Shown piece by piece: positions 45,600 through 49,661 of a stretch of DNA of 64,000 nucleotides (the stretch's first letter is position 1; every line of letters begins with the position of its first letter). Made by a program: the position numbers and the translations under genes. The stretch is from an uncultured Gemmata sp. (GTDB lineage: Bacteria; Planctomycetota; Planctomycetia; Gemmatales; Gemmataceae), in NCBI GenBank assembly GCA_937924775.1, contig CALDUT010000010.1, forward strand, positions 496,001 to 560,000. The letters are read 5' to 3'. The notes beneath the pieces are model-generated. The model saw only the letters and a program-made list of their open reading frames with translations. It was not told the origin of the DNA and did not search any database.

Positions 45600-46140
45600 C
45601 TACTGACCTTCCTCCTGGAAAGTGGACAGTGTTTTAGCCGGTGGGGAGTTGTGCGTTTGTTCGTAGTCGTTGGGGCTGACGTAGCCGAGGGTCGGGTGCC
45701 TTCGTTCGCGGTTCCAGAAGCCTTCGAGGTAGACGAAGACACTCGCCCACGCTTCGCCCGCGTCTTGATAACGAACCTGGGATCCCAGCTCCTCCTTCAG
45801 CCGACCGAAGGAAGGTACTCTCGGCCACGGCGTTGTCCCAGCAATCACCGCGACGGCTCATGCTCGGCGTGATGCCGTGCTTCGCTCACTCGCGTTGATA
45901 ATGGTCGCTCGTATACTGACTACCACGGTCGCTGTGAAACTCCAACCCCGGCGTCACTTCACAACGGCTCACCGCTTGCTCTTCATGGAGTTTCGCCAAA
46001 CTCGGTTCACGCTTAGACCACACGCATAAAACCCTGACCGTGAAACGTCCAACACGCCACACATCACCACCACTGGCCACTGCGTTCGATGCCGATTTAT
46101 CCAGGCGAAGATTACTCCATCTGACGGGCAAAGATCGCAC
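45600..46140 (-). pseudogene. IS3-type transposase orfB remnant (internal deletion and frameshifts)
   Basis: Fragments in different frames: [90 protein letters not shown]. Confidence 0.8.
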
Positions 46141-46421
46141 TCGCTGTTTTTAAGATGTCCCATTCCATTTCGGGCCGCTTGATCTTGGCTTTGAGCGTGC
46201 AATGCTCTTCTTCGAGTGGTGTCAGGTGCCCCGAGCCGGGGATAGCCGCCACCATCCCTGCGAGGCGTGCTTTCTTTCGCCAGTCGTAAAGCTGGCTTTG
46301 AGCGACGCCCAACTTCTTCGAGACTTTGGTGACACCCAGACCCAGTTCGGTCATCATCCGAACGGCCTCACGTTTGAACCCCGCCGTGTACTTCATGGCC
46401 ATCAGTCACTCCGAGGGAAGG
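45604..46421 (-). mobile_element. Degenerate IS3-type insertion sequence remnant
   Basis: Intact-looking orfA plus frameshifted/deleted orfB; imperfect terminal inverted repeats (TGACCTTCCTCCTGG... at 45604; TGTCCTTCCCTCGGAGTG on the minus strand near 46421). Confidence 0.7.
46112..46402 (-). CDS. IS3-type transposase orfA (probably non-functional in context)
   Basis: MKYTAGFKREAVRMMTELGLGVTKVSKKLGVAQSQLYDWRKKA helix-turn-helix. Confidence 0.8.
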   Translation of the reverse strand: MAMKYTAGFKREAVRMMTELGLGVTKVSKKLGVAQSQLYDWRKKARLAGMVAAIPGSGHLTPLEEEHCTLKAKIKRPEMEWDILKTASAIFARQME

Positions 46422-46510
46422 ACAGGATACATCGCGTTCCATCTGTCCACAAACCAAGGGGAGGGTTAGGTAGCCTTTCGTACCCAACAGAAACTGCCTA
46501 ATGCCTGTGG

Positions 46511-47953
46511 CTACAGATGAACCGCACCCTCGTAATAAATACTGGCCCCTCCAATAGCACTCGCGGCCCGGGTGAAACCTCCTTCGAGCGGTTGGGCGAG
46601 CTGGTTTTTGTCAAGCGACGAGGGAATGGCACACGCGTAAACTTTTTTCGGTTTCAGAAGCGTATCGACTGCTTTTAACAGAGTCTCGCGCACCACAGGG
46701 ATGTTCGATCCCCCTCCGGTCAGAATGAATTCCTGCATCGACGCGGGGGCAGACCAACGCTGACAGAAGCAACGCAGTTCCTCTACCAAACGGCCCGCAA
46801 AGTCGCGGAGGCATTGCTGAATCATTGGTTGATCGGCTTCGCCGCCGAGGATCCGTCCCCGGGCCAGGCGGTAGCCGATGCCTTCCGTATAGGCATTGAT
46901 TTGAAACGCTTCGAAATCCTTGCGTGGTAATGCCGCCAGGGCGGTCTGTTGCTCGGAGGGTAAATTATCGCGGACCATCTGATCCAGATTGGTGACCCCA
47001 TAGGCCAGCGAATGTTGTTCAATCGTAAAGTGAATTCCTTCGTCGAGGTCGGGAATTTGGCCTCCCGTATCCACTGACAAAGCGGCGAAATCGGTGGTGA
47101 AGGCCCCAATATCGACGATCAGCACGCGATAGGTAGGATAGTGGCGATTGCCCTTCAATACGGTTAGCAGCGGACCATGACCAAACATACTCCCGTAATC
47201 GATAGTTCGAATTTTGGGCCTCAGCGTGTTCAGGCCTTGGGTGAGAATGCCGATCGCATTCGATTCTGGCTCTGGAACAAAGGGGCGTTCGTCGAGTTTC
47301 CAACCGGTGTTCACCAGTGCTTCGCGTAAGCGTTGGCAACCCACATGCTGTGCTAACGTGTCGCGGGGAGCCACCGCCGGCACCGCGAAGCGAACGGGGA
47401 TGTCCTCCAGTTTGACTTTGTTACGACCGGCCCATGTCTGGCAGGCTGTCATTACGCGTTGGCGCAACCATTTCAGGTAGTGATGGGTGGCGGCTTTTGC
47501 GTTGTGGATCTCTCGTGAGACCCCCGAAGAGCCGGTCGCCCCGCGTGGGCCGTTCAAGTCCCGCGCGGCCGCCACCAGATGACGCAGGGCGGCCAGTTCC
47601 GTGGATTTGACAGCAAATTTCGCGGCCAGTTGCGCTAACTCCGAAGAACGAAGCAGTCTTTCCAAGGGGGAAAGTTCGGTCTGGGTGGGTAGAGCCGCTG
47701 TCGAAAAGAGATGACGTTTAAAGTCGGTATAAACAGTAATCGAACCCCCGGGTTTGATACCCGCGGCTTCATAGCCAAACTTCACTTGCGGACTGGTGCC
47801 GGCACTCCAATCCGCGGCCACAACTGTGGGCACCCACAGTTCCACGGCAGTATCGTCACAACGGACCAGCACCGTTTTCTCTTGAGGAGCTCGGCGCAAG
47901 GCCACTTTTGTATAAGCGCTGCCGAAGTCGATACAAAACACTCCCTCGAGCAC
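46511..47953 (-). CDS. Divergent actin/Hsp70-fold ATPase
   Basis: Phosphate-1 VFCIDFGSAYTKVALRR, phosphate-2 VLIVDIGAFTTDFAAL, adenosine motif FILTGGGSNIPVVRETLLKAV. No recognisable DnaK substrate-binding domain. Confidence 0.75.
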   Translation of the reverse strand: MLEGVFCIDFGSAYTKVALRRAPQEKTVLVRCDDTAVELWVPTVVAADWSAGTSPQVKFGYEAAGIKPGGSITVYTDFKRHLFSTAALPTQTELSPLERLLRSSELAQLAAKFAVKSTELAALRHLVAAARDLNGPRGATGSSGVSREIHNAKAATHHYLKWLRQRVMTACQTWAGRNKVKLEDIPVRFAVPAVAPRDTLAQHVGCQRLREALVNTGWKLDERPFVPEPESNAIGILTQGLNTLRPKIRTIDYGSMFGHGPLLTVLKGNRHYPTYRVLIVDIGAFTTDFAALSVDTGGQIPDLDEGIHFTIEQHSLAYGVTNLDQMVRDNLPSEQQTALAALPRKDFEAFQINAYTEGIGYRLARGRILGGEADQPMIQQCLRDFAGRLVEELRCFCQRWSAPASMQEFILTGGGSNIPVVRETLLKAVDTLLKPKKVYACAIPSSLDKNQLAQPLEGGFTRAASAIGGASIYYEGAVHL

Positions 47954-47961
47954 GACGGACC

Positions 47962-48915
47962 TCAGACTTTCGTGACGACCGCTTTGAGAGCGACATAATC
48001 TCCCTCAGACTCTTTCAGTAACCACCCCGGCCGGACAATCTTGACCTTCCCGCTCAGAAGAGGCTGATCGCAGTCGTGGTAGCGGGGCTGAAAATCGACA
48101 GTCGCCCCCACGTCCCCAATCCTACGGAAACCGCGGATATTCCACATCGCGCTTTCGAGATAATCGCGGGCGTCATCTTTTCCATCCTCCCAAGCGTCCC
48201 GCCAGGCGGCCGCCAAGCGATCGCACTCGCAACGGCGGAAATCCATCTCCTCGGGCGTTTTGAGGGGGGGGGCGTTACCGTTGGCCGATGGCGGAAAGCG
48301 TTCCCGGGAGGGCAACAGTTGCAGCAATTCGTGCGGGTCTTGACCTTCGGCTTCCCATTCCCGCTTCAAAACCTCGAGCCGGGCCAGGTGCCGCTGACGG
48401 AGCAATTCCATGGCTTTTTGCAAGGCGTTCTGGACTGCTAACTCTTCGGCTCGTCGCTTCTGGGCCGCTTGAATCCGGGCTTCGGCTTCCGCTTTCTCGG
48501 CGGCTATCGTCTCTTCGAGGAGCGGATTGAGTTCTCCCGCGGCGGCGGGAACGCGAGCTATCACGGCCTGGATCAACGGGGCGCGCTGCGTTAGCGGAGC
48601 CTCACGAATCACGGTTGTGGTGATCCGCCCCACCTTCTCTTCCGGCAAGAGGGGTAACACCCGCTCCAGACCAGCCGGAGCGAGAACTACCTGTTCGTTC
48701 CGGCCCTGTTTCGCAACCACTCTGAGGAGTGGTTGTTCCGGGTTTAGGCAAATGGCGATCGCTTCCTTATTGGCTCCGCTGGTCGAACGGAAGAGTCCGC
48801 CGTTTTTCCCCGCCAAGAGCATGGGTTGGGAAGAGTCGGCGGCTTTCACCAGCGCGGTGGTAATAAGTTCGTCGACGGAAATCGTTTTGGGTGTTTTTGT
48901 TTTGGCCACGTCCAT
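47962..48915 (-). CDS. Coiled-coil protein with GrpE-like C-terminus, partner of the actin/Hsp70-like ATPase
   Basis: Helical middle (AEKAEAEARIQAAQKRRAEELAVQNALQKAMELL) and RRIGDVGATVDFQPRYHDCDQPLLSGKVKIVRPGWLLKESEGDYVALKAVVTKV, resembling the GrpE beta-domain. 8-nt gap to the ATPase. Confidence 0.55.
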   Translation of the reverse strand: MDVAKTKTPKTISVDELITTALVKAADSSQPMLLAGKNGGLFRSTSGANKEAIAICLNPEQPLLRVVAKQGRNEQVVLAPAGLERVLPLLPEEKVGRITTTVIREAPLTQRAPLIQAVIARVPAAAGELNPLLEETIAAEKAEAEARIQAAQKRRAEELAVQNALQKAMELLRQRHLARLEVLKREWEAEGQDPHELLQLLPSRERFPPSANGNAPPLKTPEEMDFRRCECDRLAAAWRDAWEDGKDDARDYLESAMWNIRGFRRIGDVGATVDFQPRYHDCDQPLLSGKVKIVRPGWLLKESEGDYVALKAVVTKV

Positions 48916-49073
48916 GTCCTCATTTTCAGGCTATCATCCGCTGGGAATAGCACAAATCGTTCGTCTGTCCAGCGTGACGGATTGCGGCCAGACAGCCGAC
49001 ACGCTCGAGATCAGATCATAGAAAATGATACGTAATGCGGTGAAGAGAAAAACGGATCCCATGTGGGCATTGG

Positions 49074-49661
49074 CTACAAAAGGCCCTTGGTGGAAGGGAT
49101 GCCGCTGACGCGGGGGTCGATTTCCGTGGCGGCCCGCAAGGCCCGGGCCGTGGCTTTGAAAATCGCCTCGAGAATATGGTGGGTGTTACGGCCGTGATGA
49201 AGGATCACATGCAGGTTGAATAACCCGGTAGAACTGACGGCCCGCCAAAATTCCTCGCCCAACTGCGAGGAGAAACTGCCCAGAATTTCGAGTGGGACCT
49301 CGGCGCGCCACAGCAAATATGGCCGGCCGCTCAGATCGACCGCGGCGGTCACCAAAGTCTCGTCCATCGGTAGCGTGCAATCGCCGAATCGGCGGATACC
49401 GCGTTTATCCCCCAGCGCTTGCCCCAACGCCTGACCAAAACACAGGCCGACATCCTCCACGGTATGATGAGCGTCGATGTGGGTATCACCGCGGCAATTC
49501 ACACTCAAATCGAACAGAGCGTGTTTGGCGATGTGCGTGAGCATATGGTCGAAGAAGCCCACCCCTGTGGCCACCGCTGCGGTACCGGTGCCGTCGAGGT
49601 TCAGGGTCAGCCGAATGTCGGTTTCGGCGGTTCGACGCTCAATCTGCGCGGTGCGAGGCAT
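49074..49661 (-). CDS. hisB: Imidazoleglycerol-phosphate dehydratase
   Basis: ERRTAETDIRLTLNLDGTG, GFFDHMLTHIAKHALFDL, DAHHTVEDVGLCFGQAL. Confidence 0.96.
   Translation of the reverse strand: MPRTAQIERRTAETDIRLTLNLDGTGTAAVATGVGFFDHMLTHIAKHALFDLSVNCRGDTHIDAHHTVEDVGLCFGQALGQALGDKRGIRRFGDCTLPMDETLVTAAVDLSGRPYLLWRAEVPLEILGSFSSQLGEEFWRAVSSTGLFNLHVILHHGRNTHHILEAIFKATARALRAATEIDPRVSGIPSTKGLL

What the first reader, a model, noticed from the sequence alone, without database searches (positions are those of the whole stretch)
46511..48915. Two-gene cassette: divergent actin/Hsp70-fold ATPase plus a protein with a GrpE-like C-terminus
Seen: two minus-strand genes with an 8-nt gap. The downstream gene has phosphate-1 (DFGSAYTKVAL), phosphate-2 (VDIGAFTTDFA) and adenosine (LTGGGSNIPVVRE) motifs, but no DnaK-like substrate-binding domain. 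The upstream protein is helical with a C-terminus (IGDVGATVDFQPRYHD...GKVKIVRPGW) resembling the GrpE beta-domain. No dnaJ or canonical dnaK is adjacent. Inference: a dedicated chaperone-like ATPase with its own nucleotide-exchange-like partner, function unknown.
Basis: partly seen in the sequence, partly recalled or inferred. Interest (0 to 1): 0.62.

Follow-up and report, generated by a model that had tools for sequence, protein, structure and literature searches.

The report
Hsp70-like ATPase with GrpE-like partner
Two neighbouring genes in a Gemmata-type bacterium encode a shortened relative of the Hsp70 chaperone motor and a GrpE-like partner carrying an extra, possibly DNA- or protein-binding head; the pair is inherited as a unit in this one bacterial family, is found beside the ordinary chaperones, and its job is unknown.

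Summary
Gene A (46511-47953, minus, 480 aa) has all three nucleotide motifs, and its AlphaFold model matches Hsp70 ATPase domains best (Foldseek E 3e-12; all 50 listed hits are Hsp70-type, none is actin). Profile alignment covers the whole Hsp70 NBD, and five residues aligning with DnaK's catalytic set are invariant. It stops at the end of the NBD: no substrate-binding domain. Gene B (47962-48915, 317 aa) has a 67-residue helix, two short helices and a seven-strand C-terminal domain, the GrpE order; GrpE tops its fold search (weakly, E 0.13), and profile comparison beats all shuffled decoys. A occurs in 26 of 95 Gemmataceae genomes and in essentially no other planctomycetes surveyed. In 24 of 25 intact loci B lies directly upstream, usually behind hisB. 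Canonical grpE and five Hsp70 genes lie elsewhere in the genome. The pair is under purifying selection but is lost in three sister genomes and a decayed remnant in a fourth. Most likely it is a dedicated, substrate-domain-less Hsp70/GrpE-type ATPase switch: a new variant of a known kind. Complex formation, exchange activity and target remain unshown.

The parts
46511..47953 (-). Gene A: 480-aa Hsp70-NBD-like ATPase without a substrate-binding domain
   Evidence: Foldseek best hits are Hsp70 NBDs, E 3.1e-12; hhalign to Hsp70 P 8e-12 over the whole NBD; motif core residues invariant in 16 homologues
47962..48915 (-). Gene B: 317-aa protein with N-terminal module, long helix, GrpE-like C-terminus
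   Evidence: AlphaFold mean pLDDT 88; Foldseek ranks 1, 2 and 5 are GrpE; hhalign vs GrpE above all decoys
47965..48132 (-). B residues 262-317: seven-strand C-terminal domain resembling the GrpE beta domain
   Evidence: strands 263-316 in the model; profile alignment FD..HE.../V..V.RPGW.L against GrpE FDPnLH.../V..V...Gf.L
48142..48255 (-). B residues 221-258: two helices at the place of the GrpE four-helix-bundle pair
   Evidence: H221-243 and H247-258
48349..48549 (-). B residues 123-189: one 67-residue helix, likely dimer coiled coil as in GrpE
   Evidence: H123-189; dimerisation itself inferred
48553..48876 (-). B residues 14-121: N-terminal module, probably winged-helix-like
   Evidence: element order and 'LTxAGF' after the beta hairpin; MarR, PadR and ScpA WHD among Foldseek hits; homologous to the N-terminus of a second Gemmataceae protein
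47090..47113 (-). A phosphate-2 motif DIGAFTTD (residues 281-288)
   Evidence: D281, G283, T286, D288 invariant
47714..47719 (-). A residues K79-R80 (FKR), counterpart of the DnaK K70 motif
   Evidence: K79 invariant; aligned with Hsp70 'KR' by hhalign

Best explanation
A is an ATPase descended from, or sharing ancestry with, the Hsp70 nucleotide-binding domain, and B is its dedicated GrpE-fold partner. Inferred working: two B subunits pair through the long helix; the C-terminal beta domain (with the short helices) grips lobe II of A and opens its cleft to release ADP; ATP rebinding releases B. The N-terminal module of B ties the ATPase to a target (a DNA site or a partner protein). As A has no substrate-binding domain and no J-protein gene adjoins, the pair would act as a nucleotide-driven switch or remodeller on whatever that module or A's enlarged insertion (about residues 85-185) holds, rather than as a general folding chaperone. 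Shown here: folds, homology, conservation of catalytic positions, linkage, purifying selection. Inferred: the A-B complex, nucleotide exchange, dimerisation, target and biological role.
For: A: all 50 listed Foldseek hits are Hsp70-type, E from 3.1e-12; hhalign P 8e-12 across the NBD; D9, K79, E228, D281, T286 invariant at the positions of DnaK D8, K70, E171, D194, T199 (residue roles from general knowledge). B: GrpE element order, GrpE at Foldseek ranks 1, 2, 5, profile score above all decoys, invariant H280, G297-W298, L300, V314 in the GrpE signature region. Pairing: 24 of 25 intact A loci have B directly upstream, mostly 3-12 nt apart or overlapping; A and B distances correlate beyond HisB (partial r 0.59, 0 of 2000 permutations). 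In the same phylum other GrpE-like genes adjoin true Hsp70 genes, so such dedicated pairs exist.
Against: Neither protein meets the Pfam HSP70 or GrpE models (A also absent). The Foldseek E-values for GrpE are weak (0.13-0.26) and global TM-scores low; the hhalign match covers 56 columns with probability 70%. G497 has A with no adjacent B and no convincing B elsewhere. No complex was modelled. The winged-helix call rests on element order and weak fold hits; no HTH family model matched.
Confidence: 0.65

Rival explanations
1. A two-gene actin-like partition or cytoskeletal system: A forms filaments like ParM or MreB, and B is a DNA-binding adaptor (winged helix plus coiled coil) that caps or recruits the filament.
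For: A has a ParM/BcrAD-like 'D.GS..TK' phosphate-1 motif, and its weak Pfam/NCBIfam hits are MreB-like_C, MamK and Alp7A; B has a probable winged-helix N-terminus.
Against: All 50 listed fold hits of A are Hsp70; it carries the Hsp70-type K79; B's C-terminus resembles GrpE; no direct repeats upstream of B; chromosomal, no plasmid or phage relative.
Confidence: 0.15
2. An anti-phage or conflict cassette: A-B is a sensor or switch in immunity.
For: 14 of 16 A proteins weakly match the PADLOC candidate PDC-M61B; patchy loss within the genus and a decayed copy.
Against: In the window's A the match covers about 70 residues of the shared adenosine region, and PDC-M61B itself matches Hsp70-like genes. 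The locus is syntenic with the his genes in 20 of 24, has no effector gene, and is not on plasmids or phages.
Confidence: 0.1
3. B's C-terminal resemblance to GrpE is convergence of a small beta domain, and B is a DNA-binding regulator with no exchange role.
For: Weak E-values; 56 aligned columns.
Against: The whole order (long helix, two helices, beta domain) matches, not only the sheet; GrpE ranks first in an unguided search; the linked partner is an Hsp70 fold.
Confidence: 0.12
4. B regulates or serves histidine biosynthesis, being co-transcribed with the hisDCB genes.
For: hisB-B-A association in 20 of 24 loci.
Against: The 158-nt gap behind hisB in the window, other neighbours in G026, G454, G497 and G461, and loss of the pair while hisB stays in G005, G006, G008 fit plain synteny.
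Confidence: 0.05

Closest known systems
DnaK/Hsp70 nucleotide-binding domain (Pfam PF00012)
   Same: Fold, all five catalytic positions, EP.xNA and LTGGG-type motifs, 'plGvsdLD' at the start of the IIB subdomain
   Different: 12-15% identity in the fold matches; no PF00012 match; 'DFGS..TK' instead of 'DLGTTNS'; a longer helical insertion between K79 and E228; no substrate-binding domain or linker
GrpE (Pfam PF01025)
   Same: Long helix, helix pair, C-terminal beta domain; FD..H and RPGW.L...LKA.V where GrpE has FDPnLH and GY.L...LRPA.V
   Different: No PF01025 match; extra N-terminal module; 317 aa against about 180-200 aa
Accessory J-domain/GrpE/Hsp70 cassettes of other planctomycetes (L121, L131 and others)
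   Same: Dedicated GrpE-like gene with an N-terminal extension, next to its own Hsp70 gene
   Different: Those are full-length Hsp70s above the Pfam cut-off, with a J-domain gene and usually a zinc-ribbon gene; A-B has neither
NBD-only Hsp70 relatives (E. coli YegD, human HSPA13/Stch; from general knowledge, not tested here)
   Same: ATPase domain with little or no substrate-binding domain
   Different: Not known to me to be encoded with a GrpE-like partner
PADLOC candidate PDC-M61B
   Same: Weak match in the shared adenosine region (9e-07)
   Different: 588-position Hsp70-like model; a GrpE-like neighbour was found at only one of the five loci examined

Membership tests
HSP70 (PF00012) | Match to the family model over its cut-off | tested here: not met
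   No member of A1 hits PF00012; A absent from the own-genome PF00012 search
HSP70 (PF00012) | Hsp70-type NBD fold | tested here: met
   Foldseek, E 3.1e-12; hhalign P 8e-12
HSP70 (PF00012) | Catalytic D/K/E/D/T set | tested here: met
   D9, K79, E228, D281, T286 invariant in 16 sequences, matched by motif and hhalign
HSP70 (PF00012) | Interdomain linker and substrate-binding domain | tested here: not met
   Protein ends at residue 480, about 65 residues after GGG
GrpE (PF01025) | Match to the family model | tested here: not met
   No member of A2 matches
GrpE (PF01025) | Long paired helix, helix pair, C-terminal beta domain | tested here: met
   AlphaFold order; Foldseek ranks 1, 2, 5; pairing of the helix not tested
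GrpE (PF01025) | Sequence signature FDPxxHxA ... G[YF]xL ... LRPAxV | tested here: inconclusive
   Core H, G, aromatic, L, V kept; A after H and the RPA motif changed
GrpE (PF01025) | Exchange of ADP on the partner ATPase | not testable with these tools
   Needs biochemistry
Actin-like partition systems (ParM, MreB) | Best fold match among actin-like filament proteins | tested here: not met
   All 50 listed hits are Hsp70
Actin-like partition systems (ParM, MreB) | Centromere-like repeats beside the genes | tested here: not met
   No direct repeats in 48860-49110 or 46300-46530

The most novel reading that the evidence does not exclude
A DNA-anchored Hsp70 motor: B is a GrpE-type exchange factor fused to a winged-helix DNA-binding module, so an Hsp70-type ATPase without a substrate domain is cycled at a DNA site or on DNA-bound proteins, remodelling them independently of the general chaperone system.
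Probability: 0.2. Interest if true: 0.7.

Novelty: new variant of a known kind. Interest (0 to 1): 0.45.

Why it matters
Hsp70 machines normally need a substrate-binding domain, a J-protein and GrpE. A vertically kept pair with only the ATPase domain and a GrpE-like partner, beside the complete canonical set, would show the ATPase/exchange-factor core used as a free-standing switch. It gives a small two-protein system in which to ask what a GrpE-type factor does without client binding, and it replaces 'hypothetical protein' for two genes kept in many Gemmata-type genomes.

Tried and rejected
Whole-protein Pfam, NCBIfam and PADLOC scans gave only weak actin-superfamily hits for A and none sensible for B. 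Sequence and profile searches of the PDB gave nothing convincing for B and only weak actin/Hsp70 hits for A. My first GrpE reference set was built from wrong reading frames and was redone. A conserved ~545-aa downstream gene looked like a third component, but it is a zinc-ribbon plus membrane protein present in only some loci, and it is still there in G008, where A-B is missing. The defence reading from PDC-M61B was dropped once that model proved generically Hsp70-like. No plasmid or phage homologue. Paper searches found no description of such a pair; the library holds only open-licence papers. One structural caution: B's pTM is only 0.48, probably because the long helix leaves the domains free.

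Full report
Observation. Upstream lie the hisB (49074-49661), hisC and hisD-type genes (names from my reading of the translations); downstream are fragments of an IS3-like transposase. The nearest named relative is a Gemmata sp. MAG, SKYG68, 77% identical in A.

What A is. No Pfam HSP70 match exists for any of 16 homologues; the weak hits are scattered over the actin superfamily. The fold is clear: the AlphaFold model (mean pLDDT 83, pTM 0.80) has 322 PDB matches at E <= 0.001, and all 50 listed are Hsp70-type, led by 3d2e_B at 3.1e-12. Profile alignment of A homologues with Hsp70-like proteins from planctomycete genomes gives P 8e-12 across the NBD. By motif and that alignment, D9, K79, E228, D281 and T286 take the places of DnaK D8, K70, E171, D194 and T199, and all five are invariant. 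The chain ends with the NBD, so no substrate-binding domain exists. The stretch between K79 and E228 is about 50 residues longer than in DnaK (my count); its residues about 85-185 are poorly conserved and partly low-confidence.

What B is. The model (mean pLDDT 88, pTM 0.48) shows an N-terminal domain (14-121), one 67-residue helix (123-189), a disordered linker, helices 221-243 and 247-258, and seven strands 263-316. The last three blocks follow the GrpE order. Foldseek puts M. tuberculosis GrpE first, human GrpEL1 second and E. coli GrpE fifth, at weak E-values of 0.13-0.26. As a separate test, 24 B sequences were aligned by profile with 40 GrpE and GrpE-like sequences: score 42.4, P 3.9e-5, with the match in the beta domain. 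150 column-shuffled and 150 block-shuffled decoys reached at most 22.3 and 34.4. Each line alone is modest; together, and with an Hsp70-fold neighbour, they make GrpE homology likely.

B's N-terminal domain runs helix, strands, helix, beta hairpin, then 'LTxAGF' and helix. MarR, PadR and ScpA winged-helix structures appear among its Foldseek hits, though Foldseek does not report which part of B they cover. A profile of this domain also hits the N-terminus of another Gemmataceae protein of about 290 aa, also present in the window's genome (G000:C20), encoded beside an AAA-type ATPase gene. So the module is shared between proteins; winged helix is probable, DNA binding unproven.

Distribution and linkage. 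A was found in 26 of 95 Gemmataceae genomes and 5 of 39 genera; a phylum-wide sample of 392 genomes gave only the window's own genome and three marginal partial hits. No plasmid or phage match. Of the 26, 24 have B directly upstream on the same strand. G004 keeps only a remnant: B with a frameshift, and the end of B plus most of A deleted. G497 has A with no B found. In 20 of 24 the pair sits with hisB; elsewhere the neighbours differ and show no theme. G005, G006 and G008 lack the pair but keep hisB; in G008 a DDE transposase lies between hisB and the next conserved gene. A-B distances correlate after removing HisB (partial r 0.59, 0 of 2000 permutations), and both genes are under purifying selection (dN/dS about 0.10 and 0.16).

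Not the housekeeping system. Canonical grpE is at G000:C16:57561-57977, and five PF00012 genes lie elsewhere, two of them full-length. Other planctomycetes carry a different accessory cassette, J-domain/GrpE/Hsp70/zinc ribbon. A-B is thus one of several dedicated Hsp70/GrpE-type units in the phylum, the most stripped-down seen here.

Mechanism. Best supported: B dimerises through the long helix and opens A's cleft as GrpE does to DnaK, while the N-terminal module brings in a target. Fold, catalytic positions, linkage and selection are shown; complex, exchange, dimer and target are inferred. The main rival is an actin-type filament system with a DNA-binding adaptor; the Hsp70-type fold and lysine, GrpE resemblance and lack of repeats speak against it. 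An immunity role has only a generic Hsp70-type profile hit behind it.

Verdict. Observation confirmed; interpretation supported and extended; a new variant of a known kind, of moderate interest until a target is known.

Noticed in passing
L131:636-6537; also L121, L123, L124, L126, L129: A second accessory chaperone cassette in several planctomycetes: ~500-900-aa protein, short J-domain protein, GrpE-like protein with an N-terminal extension, full-length Hsp70 and (in most) a zinc-ribbon protein, in this order.
   Followed up: partly
L119:3578-9621: In G005, a genus member lacking A-B: a cluster of three Hsp70-like genes around one GrpE-like gene.
   Followed up: partly
L178:2420-5501 (G000:C20); L179-L184, L189, L190: A conserved Gemmataceae gene pair, ~290-aa protein sharing B's N-terminal module plus an AAA-type ATPase with only a marginal Pfam match; function unknown.
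   Followed up: partly
window 45889-46402: Fragments of an IS3-like transposase (HTH_Tnp_1 and a weak rve match) directly downstream of A.
   Followed up: partly
L185:3609-4724: In G008, which lacks A-B, a DDE transposase gene sits between hisB and the next conserved gene, where A-B lies in relatives.
   Followed up: partly
L052:8931-9938: Decayed A-B remnant in G004, between the his genes and the conserved downstream gene.
   Followed up: yes
L140:6142-10717: Tandem Hsp70-like genes, the second with a DUF3731 (DnaK-related) C-terminus; in the set of loci matching the PADLOC candidate PDC-M61B.
   Followed up: no
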